Assembly: GCF_003259185.1 (NCBI RefSeq) | Contig: NZ_QGMP01000002.1 | Coordinates: forward strand, 1 to 64,000 | From: Isoalcanivorax indicus | GTDB taxonomy: Bacteria > Pseudomonadota > Gammaproteobacteria > Pseudomonadales > Alcanivoracaceae | Direction: 5' to 3' | DNA: 64,000 nucleotides | In this document: one piece after another, positions 7,921-28,311 of the stretch | Position numbering within the stretch: the first letter of the stretch is position 1 | Layout of the letters: each line of letters begins with the position of its first letter | Notes under the pieces: model-generated | The model's input: the letters and a program-made list of their open reading frames with translations, nothing else | The model's database searches: none | Told to the model about the DNA's origin: nothing | Position numbers and translations under genes: made by a program

Positions 7921-10900
7921 TCAGCGCTTGATCGGCCCTGAGGTGTAATTGAGGTTGGTTTCGTTCATCGGAATGCGCAGGTTGACCTCGGCCTCCAGGA
8001 AGCCCAGCGCCACCAGTTCGACATCCAGGTTGACGTCATCCTGGCTCAGCAGCCCCACTTCCATGCGGCCATCCCGGTAGAACTCCACCGGGCCCAGCAG
8101 TTGCAGGGCAAAGCCGTAGCTGCGCTGGTTGTGCTCCAGCGGCACCGCCGCCGGGTTGGCGCCGTCCGGCAGGAAACCGGTGAGCAGCTCCAGCAGGTCG
8201 CCGGTGCCACCCAGCACCGGGTCCAGCACGGGGCCGAGCAGCCCCAGCAGCCCGCCGACCACGTCGCCCAGCCCCGGCACCACACCAATGGCATCGGCCA
8301 GCGCGTCTGGCAGGGTTTCCAGCGCCAGAATATTCACCCGCGGATCCAGGGCCGGGGAATCAATGTACAGGTTCAGGGCTGTCGCGAACTGCGGGCCGTC
8401 GGGGCCTTCGATGATCCAGCCTTCCACCAGACCGGCTTCGCCGTCTTCACAGGGGCGAATGGGCTCGGCATGGGGCGGCGTGGGCGTGCCTGACGTGCGT
8501 GCATCACAGGCATAGCGCACCCGCATGGTCATGGGTCCGGTATCCGCTGGCGCCGCCTCGCCGATGGCGGCATCGGCATCCACCACGACATTGCTGGTCT
8601 GCAACAGGGTCGGATAGAGGTATACCAGCACACCACCGCCTGCCGCCGTGACGTCCGGCGGGACCGGGGTGCGGGCAATGGCTTCGGCGGCCGCAGCGTC
8701 GAAAAAGCCAGCCACATCCGCATCAATGCCACCCGTCAGGTAAACGTAGCAGTCATCCAGCGGGTTACCGCTGCGGTCATTGCCGCATTGCAGCTCGGCA
8801 TCGTTGACCACGCCCCCCACACCGGTGACCTCGATGCGCGCCGAGTTCTTGCGCAGCTCCGGGTTTTCCACCGCATTGTCCTCGCCGGCATCACGCAGCG
8901 TGTTGCTGTTGACGTCAGCGGTCGGCAGGTTGTTGAGGAGGATACGGGCCCACGACACCTCGGGAGCGCCACGGAACACAATGGCCAGATCAGGGCCGCC
9001 GCCATTCAGTGTCGGCGCGGCACCCGGTGTTTGCGCCAGCAATCGGGTGCGCAACGGCAAGTTGTCCGCTGAGCAGATCATCTCTCCCGGCGTGCAGGCG
9101 CTGCCGCGACTCTGGCCGTTGGAGCGCAGGGTGTAGCGATACAGGGCGCCTTCTTCCCAGCGCTCATCGGGAGTAAAGACCAGATCGCGGTCACGCACCA
9201 GCAGCTCGCCGCCCACCAGTCCGGCGCTGCTGCCGTCTTCGTTCAGGCGCTCGACCACAACACTGCCCGGCTGACCGGCCTGCTCCAGCACGATGCTGTC
9301 GCGGTTCATGATCTGCGAGAAGCGTACCTCGATCGGCCGGTTTGCCGGCATCCCCGGCACCGGCAACAGATCATCACTGGTCATACCACCGTCGCAGCGC
9401 CCGCTGACGCCCGCCGCCAGATTGCGCGCACTGGTATCCAGCGCACAGGGGTAGCCGGGGTACACGTTCAGCGGCAGCGGCGACGCGAGCGCGGCGCCGT
9501 CACGCACATACTCCGGCATGGTGAAGGACAAGGTCTGCGGCACCAGCGGGTTGCCGGCGATATCGGTGATGCCATCCTGCAACACGATGTCATAGGTTTC
9601 GCCATAGGCCAGCGCGGTATTGATGACCAGAGAAATGCCGTCCAGCGTCGCATCAAAAGGCACCGGCATGCCGCCGCTGATCACCTCGACCCGGGACAGG
9701 TCATCGCCCAGCCCCAGACTGTTCGGGTCCGGGGCCTTGGTGAAGTTCACCACGATGGGGTCTCCGGGACGCTGCTTGTCACTGTTGTCCTGGAACGGCG
9801 GCACCGCATTGCCCGGCATCCAGGACTGCACCGCAAACTCGCGCATGTCCGGCATCGGATCAGGCCGCTCGTCGTCATCACCGAAACTCTGCATGCGGAA
9901 ACTGAGCGCCCCGAAGGCGGTCTGCACGCCCAGCACCTCCGGCTCCACCACCGTCAACGCATCGGCGGTCAGCCGTCCGTTCTCGACGATGGCCTGCCCG
10001 ATCAGTTCCAGATGCAGGATATTCTGGTTGAAGGCCGCATTGGCTTCCGGGTCGCCGGTGGAGATGGCGATATCCATGAACACGCGCAATTGCCGGGGTG
10101 CGTTCGGGTTACGGCTGAACGGGTTCGGCAGCAGGTAGCCCACCGCATCAGAAATGAATTCCACGGTGACGGTGCCGGAATTGAAGCCCGCCGGCACCTC
10201 ACCACCGATCTTCACCACCAGCTGGTCGCCCATGAGCATGCCACCACGACCGATACGCAGCGGCGACACATCGGGGAAATCGGGCAGGAACGCCAGCTCG
10301 GCGAAGATCATGCCCTCCTGCTGCGACGCGGTATTTTCACCGAGCAGGGAAGCCACCACCGGCACCAGATTGACGGTATCGCCGGTCAGCACCGAACGCT
10401 CACCGCTGGCCGGCGCCAGCAACGGCAACACTGAGGTGGCCCCGGCATCGCGGGGCACAAACGTCTGCGTCATCGGCAACAAGGGATCGCCGTAGCGGCT
10501 CTGCACGGCAGCGCTCGCCGACAGGGTGTAGGTGACACCAGGCTGCAGGTCTTCGTCTGGATCAATCGTGATGAAACGGCCACTGGCAAGCAGGGTGGCG
10601 GGCACCAGTTCGCCATTGGCACGCAGCGATACCGAATCACCGTAGTGCAGCGTTGCGGTGTCCAGTGGCTGGGTGAACTGCAAGCGAATGGATGAAAAAT
10701 CGATGAACTCGAGCAGGTCACCATCAGGGATCATGCGTGATACGGCAAAGGTCTCCGACAGCACGCGATCCGCGCGCGGGCCCTTTTCGGCTGGCGCCGT
10801 GCGAAAACGGATACCCTCATCCGGCAGGCCCGGCAGGCGCGGCGTGCTCAGGACATACTGCGTGTTGCCCGCCAGGGCGGCCTGCGGCCGTACCACCATG

Positions 10901-11172
10901 CTGCGGCCATCATCCGTCAGCGACACATCGGCCGCCACCGGTGTCCCGTCAGCCGTTTCGAGGCGTGCATCGTCCGGGGTGATCTCGACGGCCCGGGAGT
11001 AGCGCACCACCAGCGGCGCACGGGTCGACACCTCAACCTGGTCGGCTGCCGGATAGGTGTAGAACACCGACAGGGCGGGCGGCGCCGGTGTGACCGTTTG
11101 CGAGCTGCCACCGCAGGCGCTCAATAGCGCCGCGCTGGCCAAACCGATAACAAGGAATGCCTGCCTGATCAT
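7921..11172 (-). CDS. Large Ig-like-domain surface lipoprotein, island copy 1
   Basis: This 1,083-residue protein has a lipoprotein signal peptide with lipobox LLSAC and lipidated Cys20. After the lipobox it has Big_5-like Ig modules (residues about 35-125, VSTRAPLVVRYSR; another about 455-550, RPGDPIVVNFTKA; a third near 610). A cysteine motif YPGYPCALD followed by GRCDGG recurs in all three paralogues, as does a calcium-loop-like D-x-N-x-N-x3-D-x-G-E beginning at Asp753. The protein ends in PIKR. It lies 11 bases downstream of its barrel partner and is probably cotranscribed with it. No residues indicate an enzyme. A surface or OM-anchored partner of the barrel is my inference. Confidence 0.75.
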   Translation of the reverse strand: MIRQAFLVIGLASAALLSACGGSSQTVTPAPPALSVFYTYPAADQVEVSTRAPLVVRYSRAVEITPDDARLETADGTPVAADVSLTDDGRSMVVRPQAALAGNTQYVLSTPRLPGLPDEGIRFRTAPAEKGPRADRVLSETFAVSRMIPDGDLLEFIDFSSIRLQFTQPLDTATLHYGDSVSLRANGELVPATLLASGRFITIDPDEDLQPGVTYTLSASAAVQSRYGDPLLPMTQTFVPRDAGATSVLPLLAPASGERSVLTGDTVNLVPVVASLLGENTASQQEGMIFAELAFLPDFPDVSPLRIGRGGMLMGDQLVVKIGGEVPAGFNSGTVTVEFISDAVGYLLPNPFSRNPNAPRQLRVFMDIAISTGDPEANAAFNQNILHLELIGQAIVENGRLTADALTVVEPEVLGVQTAFGALSFRMQSFGDDDERPDPMPDMREFAVQSWMPGNAVPPFQDNSDKQRPGDPIVVNFTKAPDPNSLGLGDDLSRVEVISGGMPVPFDATLDGISLVINTALAYGETYDIVLQDGITDIAGNPLVPQTLSFTMPEYVRDGAALASPLPLNVYPGYPCALDTSARNLAAGVSGRCDGGMTSDDLLPVPGMPANRPIEVRFSQIMNRDSIVLEQAGQPGSVVVERLNEDGSSAGLVGGELLVRDRDLVFTPDERWEEGALYRYTLRSNGQSRGSACTPGEMICSADNLPLRTRLLAQTPGAAPTLNGGGPDLAIVFRGAPEVSWARILLNNLPTADVNSNTLRDAGEDNAVENPELRKNSARIEVTGVGGVVNDAELQCGNDRSGNPLDDCYVYLTGGIDADVAGFFDAAAAEAIARTPVPPDVTAAGGGVLVYLYPTLLQTSNVVVDADAAIGEAAPADTGPMTMRVRYACDARTSGTPTPPHAEPIRPCEDGEAGLVEGWIIEGPDGPQFATALNLYIDSPALDPRVNILALETLPDALADAIGVVPGLGDVVGGLLGLLGPVLDPVLGGTGDLLELLTGFLPDGANPAAVPLEHNQRSYGFALQLLGPVEFYRDGRMEVGLLSQDDVNLDVELVALGFLEAEVNLRIPMNETNLNYTSGPIKR

Positions 11173-11183
11173 CTCGCACCCCC

Positions 11184-12527
11184 TCAGAATTTGATGGTTA
11201 TCGAACCGGCGACCACATGGACATCGCCGTCGGCGGTGACCAGCTCTTCATAGGGCTCACCGTCACTGGAACGCGTGCCGGAAATAATGAAATCCCGATC
11301 ACGCAAATGGTGGTACTGGTAACCGAAGTCGAGCCGCAAGGGGAACGCCAGCACCGGCGGATTCGCAATTTCCAGTGCCCCGCCGAATCCGACAATGATG
11401 CGGTCGTTGTCCAGGTAGTTGATGTTTTCCGTGCGCGTGCTTTTCAGCGGAGACTCTTCGTAGGCCAAGCCGGTGGACACCGACAACATGTCGTTCACCC
11501 GATACTCGGCGCCGATGCGCGGAATGAAGATATCCCGGAATTCGATGTTCGCACGCGACTTGATGGTGTCGCCCTCGAACTCGCGCTCCAGACGCGACCA
11601 GCGCTGGAATTCGCCGGACAGGGCAACGCGGGCGCGGCCGAACTGATACTGGGCGCCTGCGGTCACGATTTCCGGCTGGAAGGAATCAATGGTGCGAATC
11701 GCCAGCAGCAGGCCATCACCGCCCAGGGTTTCCGGGATGATGGCGCGCGCATCCACCTTGGTGCGGGTGTTGGAGTAGCCTTTGTAGACCAGCGCGGTGT
11801 CCAGGTTCTCCATCCAGCAGGGGGTGTGGCTGCAGAAGGTCTCGCCCCAGTTCACGTTGACCCCCAGGATCGGGCGCAGTACCGGTTTTGCGGACACTTC
11901 CAGGCGTTCACGGGAGGTGGTGCCACCCAGCGTGGTGTCCGTACTCAAGGCGGCTTCAGCATGCAGCGTCACGCGCACCGACGCACCGACATCGATGCCC
12001 CGCCACAGGGTCAGCCCGCCGCCGATATTCAGAAACAGAGGCTGCCGGTCATAGGTGAAGAACTGGCCTTCCTCAGACTCACCGGACTCGAAGGCCAGCA
12101 TTTCCTGCCCGAATTTTTCGACTCCGGCGATGAAACCCAGATAGAAAGGCGTGTTGTACTTGGTGACGGAAGACAGATCGGTCTTCATGCCGATCAGCAC
12201 CTGCTGAGACGGCGTGTCGTTGAGCACGTCGCCCTCGCGGGTGGGCGCGTTGAATCCGCCCTGGCTGTCGACGCGCAATTCATGCTCGGCATGAAACAGG
12301 CCCGCCGTCAGTTCGCCGCGCGGATCACGCACCAGAAACGCGGGGTTGTAGTAGGTGGCCGACACCTGACTGTTGAACAGCGACAGCCCCTGCGCCGAGG
12401 CGATATCCGTCGGCAGGATGCCGAAGGTAGTGGCGGTATTGCCCATGCTGGCGTGGGCGCCGAGGGCAGAAATTCCCAGACCGGCGGCACAGACCGCCGC
12501 CATGGACAACCTGAGTGGAGAGAACAT
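11184..12527 (-). CDS. FadL/OmpP1-like outer-membrane barrel, island copy 1
   Basis: This 447-residue protein has a signal peptide cleaved near Ala26 (ALGAHA then SMGN). The N-terminal segment contains an NPA motif (SATYYNPAFLVRDPRGEL) reminiscent of FadL-family hydrophobic-substrate channels. Amphipathic strands follow to a C-terminal phenylalanine (GSITIKF), the BAM recognition signature. Near the C-terminus it has NYLDNDRIIVGFGGALE and a YQYHHLRDRDF segment. A C-x4-C-W pair (CSHTPCW) near residue 236 is shared with copy 2 and absent from copy 3. It is the first gene of a two-gene operon. The transported substrate is unknown; hydrocarbon or fatty-acid passage is a family-based guess. Confidence 0.7.
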   Translation of the reverse strand: MFSPLRLSMAAVCAAGLGISALGAHASMGNTATTFGILPTDIASAQGLSLFNSQVSATYYNPAFLVRDPRGELTAGLFHAEHELRVDSQGGFNAPTREGDVLNDTPSQQVLIGMKTDLSSVTKYNTPFYLGFIAGVEKFGQEMLAFESGESEEGQFFTYDRQPLFLNIGGGLTLWRGIDVGASVRVTLHAEAALSTDTTLGGTTSRERLEVSAKPVLRPILGVNVNWGETFCSHTPCWMENLDTALVYKGYSNTRTKVDARAIIPETLGGDGLLLAIRTIDSFQPEIVTAGAQYQFGRARVALSGEFQRWSRLEREFEGDTIKSRANIEFRDIFIPRIGAEYRVNDMLSVSTGLAYEESPLKSTRTENINYLDNDRIIVGFGGALEIANPPVLAFPLRLDFGYQYHHLRDRDFIISGTRSSDGEPYEELVTADGDVHVVAGSITIKF

Positions 12528-12649
12528 GATATCGCGCTCCGCATGCTTATTATTCGGGTTGTTGCAGCGTGACAGACGCAGGGAGCCGATTCAGCGGGAG
12601 TTTTTTAAGCGGCGTAGTAATCGTGTTACACGGGGGAAAACGAGTGTAA

Positions 12650-12686
12650 ACACACAGGCCATCGGCGCCGCCGACGGCCTGTGTGT
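12650..12686 (-). terminator. Long hairpin after large lipoprotein copy 2
   Basis: A 17-bp stem with one G-U wobble and a 3-base loop (outer arms ACACACAGGCC/GGCCTGTGTGT) lies 32 bases downstream of the lipoprotein stop at 12718. On the minus strand only a weak T tract follows (TGTGTGTTTACAC). It probably separates pair 2 from the promoter of pair 1. Confidence 0.55.
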
Positions 12687-12717
12687 CTGGCACTTTCGTA
12701 TCAGGACCAGGTGCCTG

Positions 12718-15717
12718 TCAGTCCTTGACCGGCCGGGACAGGAAGGTGAGGTTCATCCCCTCTTCCGGAATGCGCAGTGTCATCCCCGCCGCACCAATAC
12801 CAAGCAGGCTGATGCTCGCCGTGATATCCGAGGGCCCACCGATATTGGTCTGGCGAATCACCATGCGTCCATCGGGCATGAACTCCACCGGTCCATCCAC
12901 TTCCAGCGTCAGCGGATAGCTGTACAGGTCATGGGTGAGGGTAATACCCAGCGCGCTGGGCGCCAGATTCGGCGCGTCCAGATACAACTGCAAGGTGGCG
13001 CGCAGGCGCGGGCCGTCCGGCCCTTCATACAGCCAGCCGGTGATCGGTCGGGTGCGGCGACCCTGCTCATCCTCCTCATAGCGCAGCCGCATCACCTGCG
13101 GCCCCGTGGGAATCACGGTCTGATCGGGAATGATCAGCAGCAACAGCAATGCATGCACATCAATGGAGGTCGTCATGATTACCGTGGGACGAATATTGAC
13201 GCGCACGGCGTCTTCCGCGGGATCATAATCCACCACGTCTGCCGTCAGACCGCCAGTGATGTAGAGGAACTTCTCGTCATTGCAGGTCTGCTTGCCGGGG
13301 CTGTAACCGCCGCCGGTAAAGCCACACCCCACATTGGCGTCCAGCAACAACCCGCTGGTGTTGTTGACCCTCAACTCGGCGGCGTTGTCCGGCACAATGT
13401 AATAGCCCGGCCGCTCAGGATCCGGCTGCGGACTGGCCTCACCCGGATCAATGGCGTAGTTGGCATTCACATCCGAGGTCGGCAGGTTGACCAGATGCTG
13501 CAATACATCCCCGGTGTCCGGGCCACCGCGGAAGTGGTTGACCAGGTTCGGCCCACCCTGGTTGCCGGGACGGCCGAGCAGCAAGGCTGTCTGCAACGGA
13601 TAACCGAACTCGGCGCAGATCGCATCGTTACCGCAACCGGTGGGATTCTGGGCCGACGCCAGCACATAGCGATACAGCGCCTCGGTCTCCCATGGCGTGT
13701 CCGGCGTAAAGCGCAACGACCGGGTGTGGCGTTCAAGCCGCCCCTCGACCACGCCAGTGCAGTTGCCCGCCGCGTCCAGGCGCTCAACCCGGAAGGTGCC
13801 TTCACCGCAGTGTTCACCCAGCACTATGCTGCTGGCATCCATGTTCTGTGAGAACTGCACCTCGATGGACCGGGCCCCGGGCAGACGCTCCACCGGCAGG
13901 CGATCGTCACCGCCCTGGCCACCCACACATCGCCCCTGATGCTCAGCCTCGGTGCCGTCCAGGCTGGCATCCTGTTTGGCACAGGGATAACCGGGATAGA
14001 CCGTCAGCGCCATCGGGGCACGGTTGCCGCTACCCTGATAGACCGGCATGGCGAACTCCAGCACCTCGTCGGCCAGTGCATTGCCCGCGACATCGGTCAG
14101 TTGGCTGCTCAGGATCACCCGATAGTCGCTGCCAAACTGCAAGCCATCCTGCGGATACAGCACCAGCGACGCACCATCAAGCCGCCAGTCATGGGCGATC
14201 GGGGCATTGTCACGCTCCAGGGTGACCGCACCTTCGACACTGGCGGGATCAATCGCTTCGCTGAAATTGAGGATCACCGGATCGCCCGGCCGGGCAGCAT
14301 CAGCTTCCGCATCCGGCACCCAGGATTGCAACGTCGGCGGCGTGGTATCCGGCACCGGCGCAGGCGCGTTCAACTGATCCCGGTAAGACTCCAGCCGGAA
14401 CGACAGGATGCCCCAGGCCTGCTCCAGCCCGAGCACGCGCGGCTCCACCACCCCGATGGCATTGATGACCAGCTGGCCGTCTTCCACCATGGCTGTGCCC
14501 GCCAGCTCCACATGCAACAGGTCCTGGCTCAGGGCGCCGTTGGCCTGCGGATCTTCCGCTGTCATGGCCACGTCCATGAACAGACGGATATGCCGTGGCG
14601 AGTCGATATCCGCCGGCCCCACATAGGGGTTCTTCACCAGATACCCCATGGCATCACTGATGAAACGCACCTCGATGTCTCCGGTGCCAAAACCGGCAGG
14701 GACTTCACCGGCAATATTCACCTGTACCGCACTGCCCTCCAGCAAGGCCCCTCGCGCCACACGCAGGGGCGCCGCATCCGGGAAATTCGGAATGTACGCC
14801 AGTTCAGCGAACACATCCCCCTGCTGCTGGGAGCTGCTCTGATCCCCCAGCAGACGGGCATTCACGGGGACATTGTTGATCGGCATGCCCGTCAACGGTG
14901 AGAGAAGGGTGCCCTCGGCAGAATCCCCGGCGCGCTGCACCAGGGTTTCCCGGGGCGCAGAATCAAGCGCCACCAGCGCCCGCTCGACAGGCTCCAGGGC
15001 CTCGCCATACAGGCTTTGCAGCGCCGAGGTCGCACGCAGGGTATAGCTGCCACCGGGGCTCAGATCCTGCTCCGGATCCAGGGTCACATAGTTGCCTTGC
15101 ACCAGGACTCGGGCGGGTACCAGATCCCCCCCGGCGTCTTCCAGAAACAGGGTGTCCCCGTAACGCACCGTGTCGCGCGCCAACGGCTGCGAGAACTGCA
15201 GCCGGAACGCGGAAAAATCCATCACGGGCTGGGTGTCACCGTCGGGAATCAGGCGTGCCAGCGCGAAGGGCCCCGGCAAGGCACGCGCCTCGCGCGGGCC
15301 GGACAGGGCGTCACGGGTCATGAAGGTCAACGGCATGTCCGGCAGCCTGACCTGGCGCCCTTCCGAGTCCAGCGTACCGACACTCACCTGATAGCTGCTG
15401 AGTGGCTTGAGCGGCCCGGTCGCTGACAGCACCAGTGAGCGACCATCCTCGGTCAGACTGGCACTGAACGGCACCGGCTCGCCGGTCTCGTCTTCCCAGG
15501 TCACGGCATCTTCCGGCGCCGTATCGGTCAGCGGGTGCGAGAAGCGCAGCACCAGCGGCGCGCGCGTGGACACCGCCTGCTGGCCGGCATAAGGATAGCT
15601 GTATTCCAGCCGTGGCCGGTCGCCCCAGTCGTCGCTGGTGATCTGTTTGTCACCCCCGCATGCGCTGATCAGCACCGCGGGCAGTATGAGTAGCGCAATC
15701 GAATTTATTGTTTTCAT
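12718..15717 (-). CDS. Large Ig-like-domain surface lipoprotein, island copy 2
   Basis: This 999-residue paralogue of the 7921-11172 and 23549-26956 products has lipobox LISAC and lipidated Cys20. Ig-like modules begin with YPYAGQQAVSTRAPLVLRFS (about 40-60) and RPGDPVILNFSEAIDP (about 475). The conserved blocks are FAELAYIPNFPDAAPLR, YPGYPCAKQ...GRCVGG, EVQFSQNMD and a calcium-loop-like DVNANYAIDPGE starting at Asp749. The C-terminus reads RPVKD, aligned with PIKR and PVKE in the paralogues. It lies 11 bases after its barrel partner. The shared layout implies duplication of the whole operon. The function is unknown. Confidence 0.75.
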   Translation of the reverse strand: MKTINSIALLILPAVLISACGGDKQITSDDWGDRPRLEYSYPYAGQQAVSTRAPLVLRFSHPLTDTAPEDAVTWEDETGEPVPFSASLTEDGRSLVLSATGPLKPLSSYQVSVGTLDSEGRQVRLPDMPLTFMTRDALSGPREARALPGPFALARLIPDGDTQPVMDFSAFRLQFSQPLARDTVRYGDTLFLEDAGGDLVPARVLVQGNYVTLDPEQDLSPGGSYTLRATSALQSLYGEALEPVERALVALDSAPRETLVQRAGDSAEGTLLSPLTGMPINNVPVNARLLGDQSSSQQQGDVFAELAYIPNFPDAAPLRVARGALLEGSAVQVNIAGEVPAGFGTGDIEVRFISDAMGYLVKNPYVGPADIDSPRHIRLFMDVAMTAEDPQANGALSQDLLHVELAGTAMVEDGQLVINAIGVVEPRVLGLEQAWGILSFRLESYRDQLNAPAPVPDTTPPTLQSWVPDAEADAARPGDPVILNFSEAIDPASVEGAVTLERDNAPIAHDWRLDGASLVLYPQDGLQFGSDYRVILSSQLTDVAGNALADEVLEFAMPVYQGSGNRAPMALTVYPGYPCAKQDASLDGTEAEHQGRCVGGQGGDDRLPVERLPGARSIEVQFSQNMDASSIVLGEHCGEGTFRVERLDAAGNCTGVVEGRLERHTRSLRFTPDTPWETEALYRYVLASAQNPTGCGNDAICAEFGYPLQTALLLGRPGNQGGPNLVNHFRGGPDTGDVLQHLVNLPTSDVNANYAIDPGEASPQPDPERPGYYIVPDNAAELRVNNTSGLLLDANVGCGFTGGGYSPGKQTCNDEKFLYITGGLTADVVDYDPAEDAVRVNIRPTVIMTTSIDVHALLLLLIIPDQTVIPTGPQVMRLRYEEDEQGRRTRPITGWLYEGPDGPRLRATLQLYLDAPNLAPSALGITLTHDLYSYPLTLEVDGPVEFMPDGRMVIRQTNIGGPSDITASISLLGIGAAGMTLRIPEEGMNLTFLSRPVKD

Positions 15718-15728
15718 GATGTCCCCCG

Positions 15729-17087
15729 TCAGAATTTCAGGGTGATGGAACCGGCAATCGCATGGACATCCCCGTCCGAGCGCACACGCTCGTAGGGCAC
15801 ATCCGGATCGTCCTGGCGGCTGCTGGTCAGATCAAACTCGCGATCCCGCAGGTGGTGGTACTGATAGCCGATATCCACCCGCAGCGGGAAGGCCAGCACC
15901 GGGGGCTCACGAAACTCCGCGCTCAGTCCCAACCCGACGATCAGGCGATCATTGTCGAGATAATTCACATCCAGTGAGCGATCGCTTTCCAGCGGTGATT
16001 TCTCCCAGGCCAGCCCGCCGGTCACCGTCAGCAGATCGTTCAGCCGCACTTCGGCGCCGACACGGGGAATCACGATATCGCGGAAGCGCAGATTGGCCTG
16101 TTCCTTGATGGTGTCACCTTCCAGCTCCTTCTCCAGCCGCGACCAGCGCTGCCACTCGCCGGTCACGCCCAGGCGGGCGCGACCCCACTGGTACATGGCG
16201 CCGACCGCGACGATCTCCGGCTGGAAGGAATCCAGCGTCTGGATCGACAGCGGCAAACCGATGCTGCCGACCATGCCGGGGATGGTCGCAAAGGCGTCCA
16301 CCTTGGTGCGGGTATTGGAGTAGCCCCGGTAGGCCACTGCCGTTTCCAGGTTGTCCAGCCAGCAATCGGTTTGCGCGCACACGGTGTCGCCCCAGCGCAC
16401 ATTGACCCCGGCGATCGGTCGCAATACCGGCTTCGCCTCCACCGCCAGGGATTCGTGGCTGGTTTCGCCGTCGAGATCAGTCCAGGTGCGCAGGGTGGCA
16501 TCGGCGTGCAGGGTCACGCGCGCGGTCAGGCCCACATCGATGCCGCGCCACAGGTTCATGGCCCCGCCCAGGTTCAGGAACAGGGGCTGCCGGCCATAGT
16601 TGAAAAACTGGCCTTCGCTGGAGGTGGTGGACTCGAAGGCCAGCATTTCCCGGCCGTATTTTTCCACCCCGGCCATAAAGCCCAGATAGATCGGCCGGTT
16701 GTACTGGGTCAGCGACGTCAGGTTGGTCTTCATCCCGATCAGCAGGTGCTGGCTGGGGGCATCCTCCAGCACATCACCGCCCTCGCGGATCACCGGGTCC
16801 GGCCCGCCCAGGCTCTCCAGGCGCAGCTCGTGTTCGGCATGAAACAGCCCTACGGTCAGCTCGCCGCGCGGATCGCGGGCCAGATAGGCCGGGTTGTAAT
16901 AGGTGGCCGATACCTGCGGGTTGAACAGCGACAGGGCCTGCGCCGAGGCCAGATCCTGAGGCAGAACGCCGTAGGTGGAAGCAATATTGCCCATATTGGC
17001 ATGGGCGGTGGACACGCTCAGCAGGGAAGCACTGCACAGGACACCGGCCACACAGCCAGCGCCCCCGAAGCGGGACAGGACAGACAT
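15729..17087 (-). CDS. FadL/OmpP1-like outer-membrane barrel, island copy 2
   Basis: This 452-residue protein starts at 17087, where GGAG lies about 9 bases upstream and a signal peptide follows (cleavage near Ala30, STAHA then NMGN); a longer upstream frame lacks these. It is very similar to copy 1: SATYYNPAYLARDPRGEL, CAQTDCW, NYLDNDRLIVGLGLSAE, YQYHHLRDREF and C-terminal GSITLKF. The barrel ends in phenylalanine as expected for an outer-membrane protein. A 239-base upstream region, AT-rich in its distal part, probably carries the operon promoter. The lipoprotein gene follows after 11 bases. Confidence 0.7.
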   Translation of the reverse strand: MSVLSRFGGAGCVAGVLCSASLLSVSTAHANMGNIASTYGVLPQDLASAQALSLFNPQVSATYYNPAYLARDPRGELTVGLFHAEHELRLESLGGPDPVIREGGDVLEDAPSQHLLIGMKTNLTSLTQYNRPIYLGFMAGVEKYGREMLAFESTTSSEGQFFNYGRQPLFLNLGGAMNLWRGIDVGLTARVTLHADATLRTWTDLDGETSHESLAVEAKPVLRPIAGVNVRWGDTVCAQTDCWLDNLETAVAYRGYSNTRTKVDAFATIPGMVGSIGLPLSIQTLDSFQPEIVAVGAMYQWGRARLGVTGEWQRWSRLEKELEGDTIKEQANLRFRDIVIPRVGAEVRLNDLLTVTGGLAWEKSPLESDRSLDVNYLDNDRLIVGLGLSAEFREPPVLAFPLRVDIGYQYHHLRDREFDLTSSRQDDPDVPYERVRSDGDVHAIAGSITLKF

Positions 17088-20045: not shown

Positions 20046-20066
20046 ATTACTCCCGATAAAGAAGGT

Positions 20067-20085: not shown

Positions 20086-20126
20086 CTTCAATGGACGGGC
20101 CGGGCGCAAGCCCGCCTGCCCACGAA

Positions 20127-20150: not shown

Positions 20151-20193
20151 CCGCTGTCTTCTTCAGGCCCGATTTTCTTCAGGCCCGGTTGGC

Positions 20194-21597: not shown

Positions 21598-21645
21598 GTC
21601 TGACACCCCATAGCACAAAGAAAGGAGGCGTCAGATTGGTCTCCG

Positions 21646-21664
21646 TGACATCAAGGTGATGTCA
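21646..21664. promoter_or_regulatory. Operator-like inverted repeat upstream of DUF4397 gene
   Basis: TGACATCA, a 3-base spacer, then TGATGTCA form a perfect 8-bp dyad. It lies 48 bases before the start codon at 21597 and inside an outer dyad CGTCAG (21629-21634)/CTGACG (21667-21672). It could be a regulator site or an mRNA leader hairpin. Confidence 0.4.
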
Positions 21665-21757
21665 AGCTGACGGCGCAAACAGAATTCTTCTCCGGAAATG
21701 AGAGGTCGGCATGAACGGCGCGTCAGGATGGAATCAATACAGGGTGAAGAAGACCCG

Positions 21758-21787
21758 AAAAAAAAGCCAGACGCCGCAGCGCCTGGC
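21758..21787 (-). terminator. Rho-independent terminator after DUF4397 gene
   Basis: On the minus strand a 9-bp stem (GCCAGGCGC/GCGTCTGGC, one G-U pair) with a TGCG loop is followed by eight T residues. It lies 41 bases downstream of the stop at 21829. This is one of the best terminators in the window. Confidence 0.9.
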
Positions 21788-21828
21788 CTGAAAATAATGC
21801 TGCCACAAAGGTGGCAGCCTTGCGGCGG

Positions 21829-23427
21829 CTAGCCGATGGCAACACCGATATCCAGCAGTTCCACCTCAAAGAAGCCTTCATCTTCATCCGGGTTGCGGAT
21901 AATGAGATCGAGGATCGAACCGTTATCGATAGCACCCGACTCACTGTAGATCACATCGAAACCACCATCGTTCAGGGGCACAGCAATGCGAATGTCATAG
22001 TCACCGCCCGGAAGGACGAGGTAACCGCTATCCCGACGCACATCCAGGGTGAAATCCGGAGCCACCTCGGCAAACTGCACATCAGCATCCGTGATGTCGC
22101 CCGCTTCGGTCACGAACACGGCTACAGGACCCGAGAGCGACCCCGCATGAACGATGCGCAAGCTCGCCTGCGTGGCAATCGGGCGAGTCTGTCGCTCCAG
22201 GAAGAGCGGGAACAGTTCAGCCTCGACATCCACGGCATGCCCCCCGGCGATGGCGATGTAGCCGCGCCCCTGACCGACCATCAGATGGTTGGCGGCAATC
22301 GGCGCCTCAGCGGCACCCGCACCCTCCGCATTCACGCGCAGTGCATAGCTGCCCGCATCAACGTCAGTCCGCAGGCTGTCACCAAAAGCTATCGAGGGGA
22401 TCGTCGGGTCTGTGCAGACGTCGCTATGGTCTTCGTCACCATTGACGCAGGCGATAAAGGCCGCCTGCGGCGCGAAGTAGACTTCCGCATCACCGACGCC
22501 CGCAGCCGCATGCACCACATTCAGCGCGGCGCGGTCGTTGATGTCGCGCAGCACCAGGCTGCTGGTGGCGTTCGGGAAGCTGACCAGCAGATTGATCGGC
22601 GAATTGTCCGCAATCTGCAGCGAGGCGCCCGCGCTGTCGATAGCGCTGACCAACAGATCATCACCAGCGCGCAGGCCAACAATGTCGCTCTCGAAAACAC
22701 GGGTCTGCGACGCGGCCAGCGTGACACATATCTGGTAATCCCCCGCAGGTACTTCGAGACGGTCGGTGAAGGCGCCAAACGATGCGTCGACCACCACCGG
22801 CTCGCCAGCGGTACAGTCAAACGACTCGTCGAGCGTCGTCAGGCCCTGAGGGTCCAGACCGCCCTCACCGTCATCACCGCCCTCGTCACCACCGTCACCA
22901 TCGTCGTCCTCGTCGTCTTCAGGAGGCAGAACAGGCTCAATCGCAGCCAGATAGATGTCCACCGCTGGCGCGCCAGGCGCAGCATGGACCAGCTGAACCC
23001 GTGCCTGTCCCGCGCTCACCGGCGCTCGCTCGGTCTCGATCACGACAGGGCCGAAGGTGCCATCATCCAGCAACCCGGTGGCCACAAGGGTCCATTGGCG
23101 ATCGCGTTCGAACAACAGTGTTTCATCAATCACGCCATCCAGGGTCACGCCTCCGGGAAGATAGGCGTCAACCGTCACGTTATAGCGGCTTGGCCGCACA
23201 CGCTGAAAGGCCGACGACTGCGCAAAGCCCAGCCGATTCAAGCGAACACTGGCATTCTCATCAATACCATCATTCTGCAAGTTAACCCGCACGTCCGGCG
23301 CATCCGTGGCTGCATGGACAATACGCAGATCAGCGGTCGGACGGGAATCGGAGCTGCCGCCGCAGGCCGCCAGACTGGCTACCGCAGCGGAGACAGCTGC
23401 GACGCCCATGAGTTTTCTGAATTTCAT
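21829..23427 (-). CDS. DUF4397-repeat lipoprotein with acidic linker
   Basis: This 532-residue lipoprotein (Cys22, SLAACGGS) is a paralogue of the 20194-21597 product. It has four DUF4397 repeats starting with IVHAATDAPDV, LVHAAPGAPAV, VVHAAAGVGDA and IVHAGSLSGPV. An acidic Asp/Glu/Gly insertion (PPEDDEDDDGDGGDEGG) interrupts repeat two. A possible disulfide segment CVNGDEDHSDVC lies in repeat three. The start at 23427 has an excellent ribosome-binding site (AAGGAGAACAAG), whereas the longer frame has no signal peptide at its start. Strong terminators lie on both sides, so it is transcribed alone. The acidic stretch may bind divalent cations; that is inference. Confidence 0.8.
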   Translation of the reverse strand: MKFRKLMGVAAVSAAVASLAACGGSSDSRPTADLRIVHAATDAPDVRVNLQNDGIDENASVRLNRLGFAQSSAFQRVRPSRYNVTVDAYLPGGVTLDGVIDETLLFERDRQWTLVATGLLDDGTFGPVVIETERAPVSAGQARVQLVHAAPGAPAVDIYLAAIEPVLPPEDDEDDDGDGGDEGGDDGEGGLDPQGLTTLDESFDCTAGEPVVVDASFGAFTDRLEVPAGDYQICVTLAASQTRVFESDIVGLRAGDDLLVSAIDSAGASLQIADNSPINLLVSFPNATSSLVLRDINDRAALNVVHAAAGVGDAEVYFAPQAAFIACVNGDEDHSDVCTDPTIPSIAFGDSLRTDVDAGSYALRVNAEGAGAAEAPIAANHLMVGQGRGYIAIAGGHAVDVEAELFPLFLERQTRPIATQASLRIVHAGSLSGPVAVFVTEAGDITDADVQFAEVAPDFTLDVRRDSGYLVLPGGDYDIRIAVPLNDGGFDVIYSESGAIDNGSILDLIIRNPDEDEGFFEVELLDIGVAIG

Positions 23428-23495
23428 CTTGTTCTCCTTGATTATTCTGTTGTGCCTGATCACAGACACAAGCTTGTCATTCAATCCGCTGCGTG

Positions 23496-23523
23496 AAAAA
23501 AGGGCGGGCCGGGGTAGGCCCGC
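23496..23523 (-). terminator. Rho-independent terminator of the copy-3 operon
   Basis: On the minus strand GCGGGCC, a 6-base loop, then GGCCCGC are followed by CCTTTTTT. The hairpin lies 25 bases downstream of the lipoprotein stop at 23549 and ends the third barrel-lipoprotein transcript. Confidence 0.88.
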
Positions 23524-23548
23524 AAACTCACACGCAAAAGGCAAACTC

Positions 23549-26500
23549 TTATTCCTTCACCGGATCCGCAACGAATGCCAGCGAAGCATCACCTGCCCGC
23601 AGTGCGAGGGTGACGTTTGCATTCAGCAAGCTGATGGCATTCAGACGTGTATCCAGAACAGCATCTGCTGTATTGATGGCCGCAATCACCATACGCCCGT
23701 CTTCGAGGAACGTTACCGGGCCGCGAAGACTCAGCGAAAAGGTCAAGGACCGGATATTGTGATCGAGTGACGTCAGACCGAGCACGGGCGCATAAACTCG
23801 CGCGTCCGTCTGGGGCGCATCCACCAGCAGATCCAGGGTCGTCTCGAAAATCGGCGGGCCGTTCGGATCATCCGGATTAACACGAATCCAGCCTGTTCCG
23901 GCCTGAGTGCGATTGTTCTGTTCATCCAGCGCATAACGGGTACGCATGAACTGGGGACCCGTCGGCGCAGGGCTGCGCGGAGTACCCACACCGGACGTCG
24001 CAAACAGGTTAACGCTGGTGGTCGCGATCATGGTCGGGTAAAGCGCCACGCGCACCGCCTGCTCTCCGGATACTTCGTCATATACGTCCACACCGATGAT
24101 GTCCGCATCCAGACCGCCGTTGACATAGATGAAGGCTTCTTCATGACAGGTGCCTCCCGTGGGCGAGCAGCCGATTCTCAGGTCGTCCACTTGCCCACCG
24201 GTGGCCGCGATACTCAGCCATGATCCATTGAGCGGTATCTCGAACGGGCTCGGACCAGCATCCGGGTTGTTCGGCTGAAGGAACTGATGTCCCTGCCGCG
24301 GCACCAGTGTCGGACGCTCCTCGGGATCAAGCAGCGAATTGGCGTTCACATCCGGAGTGGGCAGCGTGACCATGGACTGGAACACTGCGGTGGTCGGCTC
24401 TGTGCCGCGGAAGAAGATCTCCAGGTTCGGGCCACCGCCGGTGTGCGTGGGCGCGCCATTATTGCCTGTGGGCTGTGTCGAGAAGAAACGCGTCATCAGA
24501 GGCAGATTGTCTGCTGAGCAGATGATATTGCCTGTGTTGCAGTCTGCCCGTGCATTGGCCAGGTTGGTCCGGTGTGGTGCGGTAGCACGAATGCTGCCGT
24601 TGGAAACCATGGTATAGCGATAGGTTTCTCCCTCGATCCATGGTTCATCCGGAACGAACCGCGCGCTGCTTTCGCTCACTTCCAGCCGCCCGGGCACCGG
24701 CTCGATGCAGGTGTTGCCGTTTGCAGTCATGCGCTCAACCCGGAATGTACCGACGTTGCAAGCGCGGCTGCCGTCCAGGTTGCCGAGCCTGAAGCTGTTG
24801 GTATTCATGGGCTTGGAGAAGCGCACCCGAATATCGCGGTTTGCAGGAAGCTCGGTGACCGGCATGTTCTCGTTAATGGCAACGACATCACCACCAGCCC
24901 AGCTTTCACGGGAGGTCCGGGAGCCGACACAGCGGCCATGATTCCCCAGCGCAATATTGCGCGCTTCGGTAGCACACGGATAGCCCGGGTAGGTCGTCAC
25001 GGCACGCGGAGACATCGGCACGCGAATGAAACGGTTGGCCTGATTTTCGTCACCCGGGTCAAAGCTCTCGCGAATCTCGTTCTGGGCGTACTCACGGAAC
25101 AGCGGCATGGTGAACTCAAGGAAATAGTCTTGCCCGATGGGGTTGTCGTACAGATCCCGAGCCATGCCATTGATGGTCACTGAATAGCTGTTATTGAAGC
25201 CAAGCCCGCCTTCCGGGTGAATAACCAGTGCAGCACCATCAGCCTTGACCTCGAAGTCCACATCCATGCCGTTACGCTGGACGTTGAGCGCTCCGGAACC
25301 CGGTTTTACGGAATCACGATAGATCGGCCGATCAAACGTCAGGATAATCGGATCGCCCGGGCGAGCCCGATCCACCTGATCGGCGGGCAGCCAGGACTGC
25401 AACGTCGCCAGACCGGCAGGCTCTTGCTGCGGCGGTGCGAGGCTCGGATGATCGTATCCTTCAAGGCGGAACGCCAACGCACCAATGGCACGATCAATAC
25501 CCAGTACATCCAGTTCAATCGCCGCCACGGCATCGATGGACAGCACACCATTCTCGATGATGGCAATACCCACCACCTCGACATGCATGACATCCTGCGT
25601 TAGCGCAGCGTTGGCCTCGGTGCCTTCTGCGCTCATCGCCACATCCATCCACATGCGAACGTGGCGCGGCGCAAAGCGATCATCCGAGCTTTCGTTGGGC
25701 AGCAGGTAGCCCACGGCATCGGAAATGATCGTGACCGAAATATCGCCGGTTTGCAGCTGCGCCGGTACTTCGCCCGAGATCAGCACTTCCACCGGGGTGC
25801 CTGACAACAGATTGCCACGAGGAATACGAAGCGGCGTCACCTCCGGGAAGTTCGGCACGAAGGCCAGATCGCCGTAAAGGTTGCCTTGCTGTGCAGACGA
25901 TGATTCATTGCCCAGCAACGTGGACTGCACCGGCACGGTGTTGATGGGCGCACCTGTCAGCTTGGAAAATACCGTTTCCCCCGTCACGTCCGGGCTGTCT
26001 GCCCGGGCAATCAGATCAGTACGCGGAAAGGTGTTGCGCGCGCGGAACAGATATTGCACCTCTTGCCCCGCTGCCAGGCTGTCTCCGAACTTGCTGCGAA
26101 TGTTACCCATCAGCACCAGCGCATAGTCGCGGCCGCCAATCAGGTCTTCGCGCGGATCGATGGTCAGGTAGTTGTCTTTGGCCAGCAGGTCAACGGGCAC
26201 CATATTGCCCATACCATCCAGCAACAGAACGGTGTCCCCCGCCGTCAGCGTTGATGTATCCAGCGGATGGGAAAACTGCACGCGGATGCTGTGGAAGTCA
26301 CCAAATACCAGCGCGCCATCGCCCGCATCCGGGATAGTACGGGTCACACGGAAATCACCCAGCGTGGCGGATGAGCGACCTGCCGTCGCCGACAGCCGCG
26401 TGGTGAACCGGATCGGCTCTGCCGGTGGACGAATGGCGCCGTTCGGGCCTTGCAGGTTGTTCCAGGTCAGCGTGTACTCACGCGCAGGCGCCAGCCGGCT

Positions 26501-26956
26501 GACCGGATTGATGACCACGCTGACGCCAGTTTGTTCGGTCTGGGTCACGCCCGCCGTGGCATCGCCATCGTCATTTCCGTTGCCGTCGCCGTTGTCGCCG
26601 TTGTCGCCGTTGTCGCCGTTGTCGCCGTTGTCGCCGTTGTCGCCATCATCACCGTCGCTGTTGTCGTCTTCAACCACGACGCGGCCGACCAGGGCGGCGG
26701 TGAAGGGCACATCATTACCGCCCGCATCCCGCAGCCGGATGCGCGATTCCAGATCCGCTTCGGAGACCCCGGCCAGATCACTGCTGAAGCGCAGCACCAG
26801 AGGGGCCGCCACCGGCACTTCCTTCTGGCCGTGATAGGGGTAGCTGAAGACAAGGCTGTCACTGGCCCATCGATCAAAGGTGACTGTGGCCTTATCACCA
26901 CCACCGCAACCGATCAGGGTGAGTGCGGCGAGCACTATGGGTATAAAATATTTCAT
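23549..26956 (-). CDS. Large Ig-like-domain surface lipoprotein, island copy 3
   Basis: This 1,135-residue paralogue is the longest of the three. It has lipobox TLIGC with Cys17. The first Ig-like module (YPYHGQKEVPVAAPLVLRFS) is interrupted at about residues 95-125 by an Asp/Gly/Asn-rich insertion that includes six GDN repeats. Conserved blocks include FPEVTPLRIPRGNLL, YPGYPCATE...GRCVGS, VRFSKPMN, CNTGNIICSADNLPL, the calcium-loop-like DVNANSLLDPEE at Asp869, and C-terminal DPVKE. It follows its barrel gene by 14 bases and ends at a strong terminator. Function is unknown; location is probably the outer membrane. Confidence 0.75.
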   Translation of the reverse strand: MKYFIPIVLAALTLIGCGGGDKATVTFDRWASDSLVFSYPYHGQKEVPVAAPLVLRFSSDLAGVSEADLESRIRLRDAGGNDVPFTAALVGRVVVEDDNSDGDDGDNGDNGDNGDNGDNGDNGDGNGNDDGDATAGVTQTEQTGVSVVINPVSRLAPAREYTLTWNNLQGPNGAIRPPAEPIRFTTRLSATAGRSSATLGDFRVTRTIPDAGDGALVFGDFHSIRVQFSHPLDTSTLTAGDTVLLLDGMGNMVPVDLLAKDNYLTIDPREDLIGGRDYALVLMGNIRSKFGDSLAAGQEVQYLFRARNTFPRTDLIARADSPDVTGETVFSKLTGAPINTVPVQSTLLGNESSSAQQGNLYGDLAFVPNFPEVTPLRIPRGNLLSGTPVEVLISGEVPAQLQTGDISVTIISDAVGYLLPNESSDDRFAPRHVRMWMDVAMSAEGTEANAALTQDVMHVEVVGIAIIENGVLSIDAVAAIELDVLGIDRAIGALAFRLEGYDHPSLAPPQQEPAGLATLQSWLPADQVDRARPGDPIILTFDRPIYRDSVKPGSGALNVQRNGMDVDFEVKADGAALVIHPEGGLGFNNSYSVTINGMARDLYDNPIGQDYFLEFTMPLFREYAQNEIRESFDPGDENQANRFIRVPMSPRAVTTYPGYPCATEARNIALGNHGRCVGSRTSRESWAGGDVVAINENMPVTELPANRDIRVRFSKPMNTNSFRLGNLDGSRACNVGTFRVERMTANGNTCIEPVPGRLEVSESSARFVPDEPWIEGETYRYTMVSNGSIRATAPHRTNLANARADCNTGNIICSADNLPLMTRFFSTQPTGNNGAPTHTGGGPNLEIFFRGTEPTTAVFQSMVTLPTPDVNANSLLDPEERPTLVPRQGHQFLQPNNPDAGPSPFEIPLNGSWLSIAATGGQVDDLRIGCSPTGGTCHEEAFIYVNGGLDADIIGVDVYDEVSGEQAVRVALYPTMIATTSVNLFATSGVGTPRSPAPTGPQFMRTRYALDEQNNRTQAGTGWIRVNPDDPNGPPIFETTLDLLVDAPQTDARVYAPVLGLTSLDHNIRSLTFSLSLRGPVTFLEDGRMVIAAINTADAVLDTRLNAISLLNANVTLALRAGDASLAFVADPVKE
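26591..26644. repeat. In-frame 9-bp tandem repeat, six units
   Basis: Six perfect copies of GTTGTCGCC encode Gly-Asp-Asn repeats on the minus strand within large lipoprotein copy 3. Imperfect units flank the array. The unit is a multiple of three, so copy-number change alters linker length without breaking the frame. Confidence 0.95.
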
Positions 26957-26970
26957 GTCAGCACTCCCGC

Positions 26971-28311
26971 TCAGAACGTCATGGTCAGCGTGGCGCCAAA
27001 GACGTGCGCCTGGCCATCTACATTGACCGTTTCATACGGATTAAAACTGCTGTTGTCCGAGGTCAGATCGAACTTTCGCTCGCGCAGATGCTGGTATTGA
27101 TAGGCGACATCCAGACGCACCGGATAGTTGAAGCCGGGCACCTCCGCAAACTCGATACCGCCGCCCACACCCAGCACGATGCGATCGTTGTCGAAGTAGT
27201 TCACGCCACGGGACTCGTTGCCGTCGAGCGGTGATTTTTCATAGGAAATCCCCGACACCACCGAGAACATCGGATTGATGCGATACTCCATGCCAAAGCG
27301 GGGGATCACCACATCCTCGAATTTCATGTCAGCCTGATCGCGCACTGAATCGCGAGCGAATTCGCCCTCAAGCTGAGACCAGCGCTGCAGTTCAGCCACC
27401 GCAGAAATGCGCAGCGCACCGTCGCCATAGCTGGCGCCGACGGCATAGATCTCGGGCTGGAAAGCATGCAGGGTACGCAAGGACAGGCCCAGCCCGTCAT
27501 TGATCAGACCGGGAATGATGGCCAGCGCATCAATGTCCGCCCGCGAGGCCGTTTTTTTCCGGTACGTCAGCGCTGTCTCGACACCGCGCAGCCAGCTGCT
27601 GTCATCCGCACCCAGCACCTCACCCCAATGCACGCTCAGACCGACAATCGGGCTGAGTACCGGCTTGGCCGACACCGCGATCTGCTCGTTGCTGGTGACT
27701 CCGCCTGGCGTGGATTCAAGTACCAGGTCAGCATCCGCCTCCAGGGTCACCCGCACTGAGGCACCCACATCAATGCCCGGTGCCAGATTCGCACCGACGC
27801 CGATATTCAGAAACAGCGGTTGCGCGCCGTAGCGGAAGTACTGGCCCTCATCCGAGGTTTCGGCGTTGAAGCCCAGCATTTCAGTGCCGTATTTCTCCAC
27901 GCCGGCCATCATGCCCAGCACCAGCGCGCGATCGGTGCTGAACAGGTCTGACAGGTCTGTTTTCATGCCGATCAGTACATGCTCGGTGCGACCTGCACCC
28001 ACACCGCTACCATCACGGTTGGGCGCAAAGCTGGAGGCAAAATCCGTGCGGGCATCAATGTCGGTATTGGCCGTCAGGGCCCCGACCGACAATTCGCCGC
28101 GGCGATCTCGGGCCAGGTAGGCGGGGTTGTAATAGGTCGCCGCCACACCGCTGTTGAACATGGACATGGCCTGGGCGGTCCCCACATCCAGCGGCGTCAC
28201 GCCGTAGGTGGTGCCGATATTGCCCATGCTGGCTGTCGCGGTAAGGGGGAACAGGGTCATGCCGGCGGCCGCAAAGAGGGCCCGCCGCGCGCGCGGAAGG
28301 TGTTTCATCAT
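26971..28311 (-). CDS. FadL/OmpP1-like outer-membrane barrel, island copy 3
   Basis: This 446-residue protein has a signal peptide cleaved near Ala27 (TATA then SMGNIGTTYG). It shares with copies 1 and 2 the ATYYNPAYLARDRRGEL block, NYFDNDRIVLGVGGGIE, YQYQHLRERKF and a C-terminal phenylalanine (ATLTMTF). It is the most divergent copy: the C-x4-C pair present in the other two is replaced by GADDSSW, and the N-terminal region after the NPA block differs. It heads the third two-gene operon, and its 322-base upstream region is unusually AT-rich with nested inverted repeats. Confidence 0.7.
   Translation of the reverse strand: MMKHLPRARRALFAAAGMTLFPLTATASMGNIGTTYGVTPLDVGTAQAMSMFNSGVAATYYNPAYLARDRRGELSVGALTANTDIDARTDFASSFAPNRDGSGVGAGRTEHVLIGMKTDLSDLFSTDRALVLGMMAGVEKYGTEMLGFNAETSDEGQYFRYGAQPLFLNIGVGANLAPGIDVGASVRVTLEADADLVLESTPGGVTSNEQIAVSAKPVLSPIVGLSVHWGEVLGADDSSWLRGVETALTYRKKTASRADIDALAIIPGLINDGLGLSLRTLHAFQPEIYAVGASYGDGALRISAVAELQRWSQLEGEFARDSVRDQADMKFEDVVIPRFGMEYRINPMFSVVSGISYEKSPLDGNESRGVNYFDNDRIVLGVGGGIEFAEVPGFNYPVRLDVAYQYQHLRERKFDLTSDNSSFNPYETVNVDGQAHVFGATLTMTF

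What the first reader, a model, noticed from the sequence alone, without database searches (positions are those of the whole stretch)
7921..28311. Three paralogous barrel-plus-giant-lipoprotein operons: candidate undescribed outer-membrane system
The sequence shows three same-strand operons with identical architecture: a FadL-like barrel (446-452 residues), an 11-14 base gap, then a lipoprotein of 999-1,135 residues. Both members share motifs across all copies (ATYYNPA and a C-terminal Phe in the barrels; YPGYPCA...GRC, DVN-x-N and a final P-x-K in the lipoproteins). FadL-type barrels move hydrophobic molecules. Inference: each lipoprotein is a dedicated plug, lid or surface receptor for its barrel, an arrangement formally like SusCD but built from different families.
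Basis: partly seen in the sequence, partly recalled or inferred. Interest (0 to 1): 0.8.

Follow-up and report, generated by a model that had tools for sequence, protein, structure and literature searches.

The report
Alkane-uptake pairs with swappable outer-membrane partners
The three gene pairs are extra copies of AupA-AupB, a known two-part alkane uptake system of oil-eating marine bacteria, and relatives of the large lipoprotein also turn up beside a second, unrelated kind of outer-membrane channel, a pairing I did not find described.

Summary
In detail: three same-strand pairs, each a FadL-like barrel (447, 452, 446 aa), an 11, 11 or 14 base gap, then a lipoprotein (1083, 999, 1135 aa). 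'Undescribed' is wrong. All three barrels match NCBIfam alkane uptake protein AupA (E 1e-134 to 1e-169, below its equivalog cut-off), and layout, 11-nt gap and multi-copy state are those of aupAB in Marinobacter hydrocarbonoclasticus (PMC5989066). There AupA (outer membrane) and AupB (mostly inner membrane) co-precipitate and are needed for uptake of micellar hexadecane. The plug, lid or surface-receptor reading is therefore disfavoured; a periplasmic hand-over factor fits better. The genome holds five such pairs. Of 45 AupA ORFs in 12 genomes of its family, 43 are directly followed by AupB. New, as far as I searched: a distant branch of AupB-like lipoproteins (profile E 3e-110) sits before an OmpW/AlkL-type barrel, unrelated in sequence to AupA, in 38 of 39 genes examined, two of them in this genome. 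In one family a gene of DUF748 type (AsmA/YhdP-related) follows. So the lipoprotein, not the barrel, seems to be the constant module. Function of the OmpW-linked form is inferred only.

The parts
26971..28311 (-). AupA-like FadL-type barrel, pair 3 (446 aa)
   Evidence: Toluene_X E 5e-15; NF041571 AupA 449 bits against cut-off 840
23549..26956 (-). AupB-like Big_5 lipoprotein, pair 3 (1135 aa), 14 bases after its barrel
   Evidence: Big_5 E 1.5e-28; lipobox LIGC-GGG
23504..23523 (-). Terminator-like stem (7 G-C pairs, then T-run) just after pair 3
   Evidence: 17 terminator-like sites found in 10900-28700; 11.1 expected in shuffles
15729..17087 (-). AupA-like FadL-type barrel, pair 2 (452 aa)
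   Evidence: Toluene_X E 2.5e-8; NF041571 558 bits; model pLDDT 83, Foldseek best hit a FadL homologue E 1e-16
12718..15717 (-). AupB-like Big_5 lipoprotein, pair 2 (999 aa), 11 bases after its barrel
   Evidence: Big_5 E 1e-36; lipobox ISAC-GGD; model pLDDT 90, pTM 0.88
11184..12527 (-). AupA-like FadL-type barrel, pair 1 (447 aa)
   Evidence: Toluene_X E 4e-10; NF041571 564 bits
7921..11172 (-). AupB-like Big_5 lipoprotein, pair 1 (1083 aa), 11 bases after its barrel
   Evidence: Big_5 E 2e-28; lipobox LSAC-GGS

Best explanation
The three pairs are paralogous members of the AupA-AupB alkane-uptake family in an Alcanivorax-type bacterium (five pairs in all). Likely mechanism: AupA, a FadL-type barrel, takes a long-chain alkane from a micelle or oil surface and lets it out sideways into or through the outer membrane. 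AupB, an acylated, mostly beta, periplasmic protein of Ig-like domains plus two long-strand beta regions, docks on the barrel from below and helps the nearly insoluble alkane leave the outer membrane and reach the inner membrane, where alkane hydroxylase sits. The copies probably differ in chain-length preference or regulation. Shown elsewhere, in Marinobacter: need for alkane growth, uptake of micellar hexadecane, locations, binding of AupA to AupB. Shown here: homology, pairing, predicted folds, copy number. Inferred: hand-over by AupB, and specialisation of the copies.
For: NF041571 AupA matches 3 of 3 barrels, E 1e-134 to 1e-169. Same order, strand and spacing as SP17 aupAB (11 nt) and the same multi-copy habit, up to six in Alcanivorax sp. 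DG881 (PMC5989066). A Marinobacter adhaerens plasmid has the same pair. Linkage from the barrel side: 43 of 45 AupA ORFs in 12 family genomes are directly followed by AupB; the other 2 are a tandem A-A with AupB 688 bases after the second. In 74 named loci 96 of 102 AupA ORFs are followed by AupB; of the other 6, 4 have AupB just before them (3 within 49 bases or overlapping, 1 at 334 bases), 1 is the first piece of a split AupA whose second piece is linked, and 1 is covered by an over-long AupB frame. The three canonical FadL genes of this genome have no AupB-like neighbour. A and B trees agree: Mantel r 0.72, best of 999 permutations 0.14, 94 pairs. Fold: FadL, TodX and TbuX are among the top PDB matches, TM-scores about 0.45-0.6. 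The genome has 12 FA_desaturase-family genes; of the 8 loci looked into, 4 hold EHYGL or QHYGL, a string I associate with AlkB (association recalled).
Against: No barrel reaches the AupA equivalog cut-off (449-564 against 840 bits), so these are family members, not proven functional equivalents. Linkage was tested from the barrel side; from the lipoprotein side one AupB without AupA in a 15.5-kb stretch was seen (L202), and the paper too reports isolated copies. Cys-Gly lipoboxes predict outer membrane by the E. coli rule, against an inner-membrane AupB; but Marinobacter AupB homologues also carry Gly (19 of 20 with a recognised lipobox), so the rule and the published fractionation may simply disagree. 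Tree agreement is also expected from shared species history (41 of 91 splits shared). AlkB identity was not confirmed: NCBIfam named none of the 4 candidates at E 1e-10.
Confidence: 0.85

Rival explanations
1. SusCD-like: each lipoprotein is an outer-membrane plug, lid or surface receptor of its barrel.
For: Close pairing; Cys-Gly lipobox, outer-membrane default in E. coli (rule recalled); a small part of SP17 AupB co-fractionates with the outer membrane (PMC5989066).
Against: Most SP17 AupB lies with the inner membrane. The lipoprotein model is nearly all beta, not the helical SusD fold (recalled), and the barrel is FadL-type with its own N-terminal segment. In one genome family the related lipoprotein-OmpW pair is followed by a DUF748/YhdP-related gene, which points to the periplasm.
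Confidence: 0.07
2. The lipoprotein is a barrel-assembly or stabilising partner (pilotin-like) and does not touch the substrate.
For: Pairing with two barrel families unrelated in sequence would suit a helper as well as a carrier; the SP17 complex is shown by co-precipitation.
Against: About 1,000 residues is large for a pilotin (recalled). Canonical FadL and OmpW in the same genome lack such a neighbour.
Confidence: 0.13
3. Same architecture, but some window copies carry other hydrophobic substrates (fatty acids, wax esters, terpenoids, aromatics).
For: Copies are diverged (barrels 49-66% identical); scores fall below the AupA equivalog cut-off; FadL relatives carry many hydrophobic compounds.
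Against: SP17 aup mutants grow normally on hexadecanol, palmitate, wax ester and triglyceride; the published family is almost confined to alkane degraders.
Confidence: 0.25

Closest known systems
AupA-AupB (aupAB operon), Marinobacter hydrocarbonoclasticus SP17, PMC5989066
   Same: FadL-type barrel then large partner, same strand, 11-nt gap, several copies in Alcanivorax, marine alkane degraders
   Different: Window barrels score below the AupA equivalog cut-off. The main text has no occurrence of lipoprotein, lipobox or Ig-like, and names OmpW once, about AlkL.
FadL / TodX / TbuX (Toluene_X, PF03349)
   Same: Fold
   Different: Three canonical members in this genome stand without an AupB-like gene
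OmpW / AlkL (PF03922)
   Same: Barrel family found after the second branch of AupB-like lipoproteins
   Different: The lipoprotein-linked OmpW barrels are longer (mostly 265-311 aa as called) and in most scans match only part of the OmpW model; the canonical OmpW of this genome has no such partner
SusCD
   Same: Outer-membrane barrel encoded next to a lipoprotein
   Different: Neither partner is of those folds; AupB reported mostly at the inner membrane

Membership tests
AupAB alkane-uptake family | Barrel homologous to AupA | tested here: met
   NF041571 E 8e-168, 1.5e-169, 1e-134 over 428 or more of 444 profile positions
AupA as NCBI equivalog NF041571 | Score at or above the curated cut-off of 840 bits | tested here: not met
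   558, 564 and 449 bits; so not filed as the AupA equivalog, only in the wider family
AupAB alkane-uptake family | AupB-type gene directly downstream, same strand, short gap | tested here: met
   3 of 3 in the window, 5 of 5 in the genome
AupAB alkane-uptake family | Several copies in Alcanivorax-type genomes | tested here: met
   Five pairs here; 2-5 strong barrel matches in each of the 11 other family genomes searched
AupAB alkane-uptake family | Induction by, and requirement for, growth on alkanes | not testable with these tools
   Needs expression data and mutants
AupAB alkane-uptake family | AupB at the inner membrane and bound to AupA | not testable with these tools
   Lipobox present, but membrane choice cannot be read from it safely
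FadL/Toluene_X | FadL fold | tested here: met
   Top PDB hits 3dwo, FadL and its mutants, TodX; E 1e-16 to 1e-12; one of the three window barrels was modelled
SusCD | TonB-dependent barrel plus SusD-fold lipoprotein | tested here: not met
   FadL-type barrel; lipoprotein model almost all beta with a few short helices
OmpW family (partner of the second AupB-like branch, outside the window) | PF03922 above its gathering score | tested here: met
   6 of 6 barrels scanned; the rest placed by profiles built from such barrels

The most novel reading that the evidence does not exclude
AupB-type lipoproteins are a general receiving module for hydrophobic cargo that works with two unrelated outer-membrane channels: FadL-type (AupA-AupB) and OmpW/AlkL-type (lipoprotein gene first, barrel second). 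In one bacterial family the second form is extended by a DUF748 protein related to AsmA/YhdP, which suggests a continuous outer-to-inner-membrane hydrocarbon conduit. The genome of this window carries both forms (five FadL-type pairs, two OmpW-type pairs).
Probability: 0.5. Interest if true: 0.72.

Novelty: new member of a known kind. Interest (0 to 1): 0.42.

Why it matters
How nearly insoluble alkanes cross the periplasm is open; AupB is the only candidate protein for that step that I met in the papers opened. Seeing its relatives coupled to a second channel family makes the question testable: the shared part of the two systems should be the part that does the periplasmic step. It may also give a genome marker for hydrocarbon uptake beyond FadL and AlkL alone.

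Tried and rejected
Rejected: SusCD analogue (folds and published location). Rejected: 'no known relatives' (NCBIfam, PMC5989066). Weak: the residue after the lipobox Cys as a guide to location. In AupB it is Gly in nearly all cases, also in Marinobacter, where the SP17 protein is mostly at the inner membrane (2 of 98 recognised sites acidic). In the OmpW-linked branch it is Glu or Asp in 26 of 39, Gly in 10, Ser in 3; this count rests on the automatic picks (Glu or Asp 24) with four of them corrected by eye from the N-termini printed; the tally mis-picked several sites and should not be used.

Led nowhere: PDB sequence search with AupB (best E 0.05); Foldseek with the AupB model returned Ig-like and S-layer repeats with low TM-scores among the 50 rows shown, so the two long-strand beta regions stay without a named relative; the strand faces show no more than any beta sandwich would; plasmid searches with OmpW-linked lipoproteins gave only the M. 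adhaerens AupB and nothing. A DUF748 profile found nothing in 3,217 open frames of the window and loci L045-L184, so in what I saw that link is limited to one family. The names of the families numbered f69, f170 and f210 were not established. Paper searches listed no title or abstract start about an AupB-like gene paired with an OmpW barrel; most listed papers were not opened, and the library misses most subscription papers. PMC5989066: parts 1-5 of 7 plus a term search; PMC7822026, PMC5174103 and PMC6304351: passages only; the rest: listing only.

Limits: neighbours were looked for after the first OmpW pair was seen; the OmpW profile comes from the first five barrels; chance linkage was not computed. 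Loci overlap in part (the same genomes under two names), so their counts are not independent. One search kept the best 80 of 205 candidates. No complex could be predicted (single chains only), so cognate against swapped pairs was not tested. L158 is the one OmpW-branch gene without a barrel in about 6 kb downstream.
Full report
Observation. The three pairs are as described. On the minus strand lie barrel 11184-12527 and lipoprotein 7921-11172; barrel 15729-17087 and lipoprotein 12718-15717; barrel 26971-28311 and lipoprotein 23549-26956, with 11, 11 and 14 bases between partners. Pfam places 3 of 3 barrels in Toluene_X (FadL) and 3 of 3 lipoproteins in Big_5. A terminator-like stem follows pair 3, so that pair looks like a two-gene unit and the two DUF4397 lipoproteins downstream are probably separate.

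Identity. NCBIfam NF041571, 'alkane uptake protein AupA', matches all three barrels over nearly full length at E 1e-134 to 1e-169, though below its equivalog cut-off of 840 bits (449, 558, 564). The paper behind the name (PMC5989066) describes an operon of a FadL-like gene and a second gene 11 nt downstream in Marinobacter hydrocarbonoclasticus. AupA lies in the outer membrane, AupB mostly in the inner membrane with a small part beside AupA; they co-precipitate; mutants grow more slowly on paraffin and hexadecane and not at all on hexadecane in Brij 58 micelles. The authors find aup genes in 76 bacteria and up to six copies in Alcanivorax, and propose that AupB helps alkane pass from outer to inner membrane. 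A proteomic study (PMC7822026, passages) saw both homologues 4.6 to 4.9 times as abundant on hexadecane in another Marinobacter. So the window's arrangement is published; these are further members, and I file them in the family, not as the AupA equivalog.

The genome. Two more pairs lie elsewhere, five in all. The three canonical FadL genes (233-376 bits) have no AupB-like neighbour, whereas the five AupA-like genes, weak against the same model (25-43 bits), all do.

Linkage elsewhere. Of 18 genomes searched (own included), 12, all of the window's family, have AupA-like barrels, 45 strong matches in all; 6 genomes of other families of the order have none. Of the 45, 43 are directly followed by AupB; the other 2 form a tandem A-A with AupB 688 bases after the second. 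In 74 named loci from a species-level collection (Alcanivorax, Alloalcanivorax, Marinobacter, Mangrovitalea, and MAGs under other names; best 80 of 205 candidates kept), the script found 102 AupA ORFs, 96 followed by AupB. Of the other 6, four (L090, L125, L128, L148) have AupB just before them (334, 45 and 49 bases, and overlapping; in L148 the stretch ends 529 bases after AupA), one (L095) is the first piece of a split AupA whose second piece is linked, and one (L136) is covered by an over-long AupB frame. This tests linkage from the barrel side. From the lipoprotein side, all seven full-length AupB-like genes of this genome stand beside a barrel, but one AupB in a related genome stands alone in a 15.5-kb stretch (L202), and the paper also mentions isolated copies. 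In 369 genomes drawn evenly from the class, the AupA profile at E 1e-30 found only this genome. Trees of 94 pairs agree (Mantel r 0.72 against at most 0.14 in 999 permutations; nearest neighbour the same in 60 of 94; 41 of 91 splits shared), as expected for pairs that travel together, though shared species history adds to it.

Structure. The barrel model (pLDDT 83, pTM 0.81) finds FadL homologues, FadL, TodX and TbuX as best PDB matches. The barrels share a YYNPA motif; FadL also has a known NPA motif (a delta-NPA mutant is among the hits), but that the two coincide was not checked. The lipoprotein model is good (pLDDT 90, pTM 0.88, 73 sequences). It is nearly all beta: by my reading of the strand pattern, four Ig-like units (Pfam finds three Big_5 stretches) and two regions of long strands (about 256-445 and 725-995). 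The Foldseek rows shown are Ig-like or S-layer repeats.

A second branch. The lipoprotein search in this genome also gave two distant hits (31% and 29%). Each is followed by an OmpW-family barrel (Pfam above cut-off) on the same strand, 13 and 33 bases downstream. Profile comparison shows the lipoproteins to be one family with AupB (probability 100, E 3e-110, 954 columns), while the barrels are unrelated in sequence (probability 0.35). I then collected this branch: 33 genes in 30 stretches (two split genes counted once each) from the genus, the family (28 rows of 498 bits or more, own two included) and two distant families. 32 of 33 have an OmpW-type barrel downstream on the same strand: 30 within 78 bases or overlapping, two at 1.5 and 2.5 kb. 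One of the 30 is L183, a gene in two pieces about 5 kb apart; its barrel follows the second piece (L214). The one without is L158. Six more, in one further family of the order, all have it: 38 of 39. The order is the reverse of aupAB: lipoprotein first, barrel second. The canonical OmpW of this genome has no such neighbour. In 390 genomes of the order, 14 carry the branch at E 1e-140 or better; in 369 of the class, 4 at E 1e-25. In 398 of the phylum at E 1e-25, 5 genomes matched, of which only the window's own is clearly of this branch; in each of the other four the gene viewed scores higher as AupB.

A third neighbour. In the six genomes of that further family a gene of about 970-1,010 codons follows the barrel on the same strand. 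Pfam calls it DUF748, with weaker YhdP and AsmA matches, in 3 of 3 scanned; the other three are alike in position and N-terminal sequence and were not scanned. AsmA-like proteins are thought to be lipid bridges across the periplasm (recalled). Near two of the distant-family genes (L156, L158), on the opposite strand, lie MlaD-type genes (2 scanned, both MlaD) and, in L156, an ABC auxiliary lipoprotein (1 scanned), again a hint of lipid traffic between membranes.

Mechanism. Best reading: the barrel admits the hydrophobic molecule, and the AupB-type lipoprotein, docked below, receives it or helps it off the outer membrane. The need for both proteins, their binding and their locations are shown in Marinobacter; the rest is inference. 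That one lipoprotein family sits beside two unrelated barrels favours a role in the step both systems share, the periplasmic one, over a role as lid of one barrel type. A helper role in barrel assembly is not excluded.

Novelty. The finding as given is a new member of a known kind. The OmpW-linked branch and the DUF748 extension I did not find in print, in a limited library and mostly from listings. They are the part worth following.

Noticed in passing
window 20194-21597 and 21829-23427 (minus): Two DUF4397 lipoproteins (467 and 532 aa) between pairs 2 and 3; two ORFs of the same kind also lie between pairs in a same-genus genome (L055), so they may belong to the neighbourhood.
   Followed up: partly
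window 17327-20081 (minus): ABC permease (BPD_transp_1) and a solute-binding protein between pairs 2 and 3.
   Followed up: partly
window 2330-7845 (minus): Glycine cleavage genes (P-protein as two subunits, T-protein) and an AraC-type regulator next to pair 1.
   Followed up: partly
window about 26550-26670 (minus): Asp-Gly-Asn repeat (DNGDNGDNG) inside the third lipoprotein, which accounts for part of its greater length.
   Followed up: no
L047 (G000:C1:1533000-1552000): Two AupB-like lipoprotein plus OmpW-type barrel pairs in tandem in the window's own genome; a GMC oxidoreductase and an alpha/beta hydrolase and, by eye, an aldehyde dehydrogenase lie near.
   Followed up: yes
L193-L198: AupB-like lipoprotein, OmpW-type barrel, then a DUF748-type gene (3 of 6 scanned); in L196 an 832-aa frame that looks like an MMPL transporter by eye follows. 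Three (L193, L197, L198) have a histidine kinase-like frame nearby; that of L193 was scanned.
   Followed up: partly
L156 and L158: MlaD-type genes on the opposite strand beside the AupB-like gene.
   Followed up: partly
L090, L125, L128, L148: AupB upstream of AupA, the reverse of the usual gene order.
   Followed up: partly
L073: Tandem AupA-AupA with a single AupB 688 bases downstream.
   Followed up: no
L202 (G008:C40:263000-278500): An AupB (1098 aa) with no AupA in the 15.5-kb stretch.
   Followed up: no
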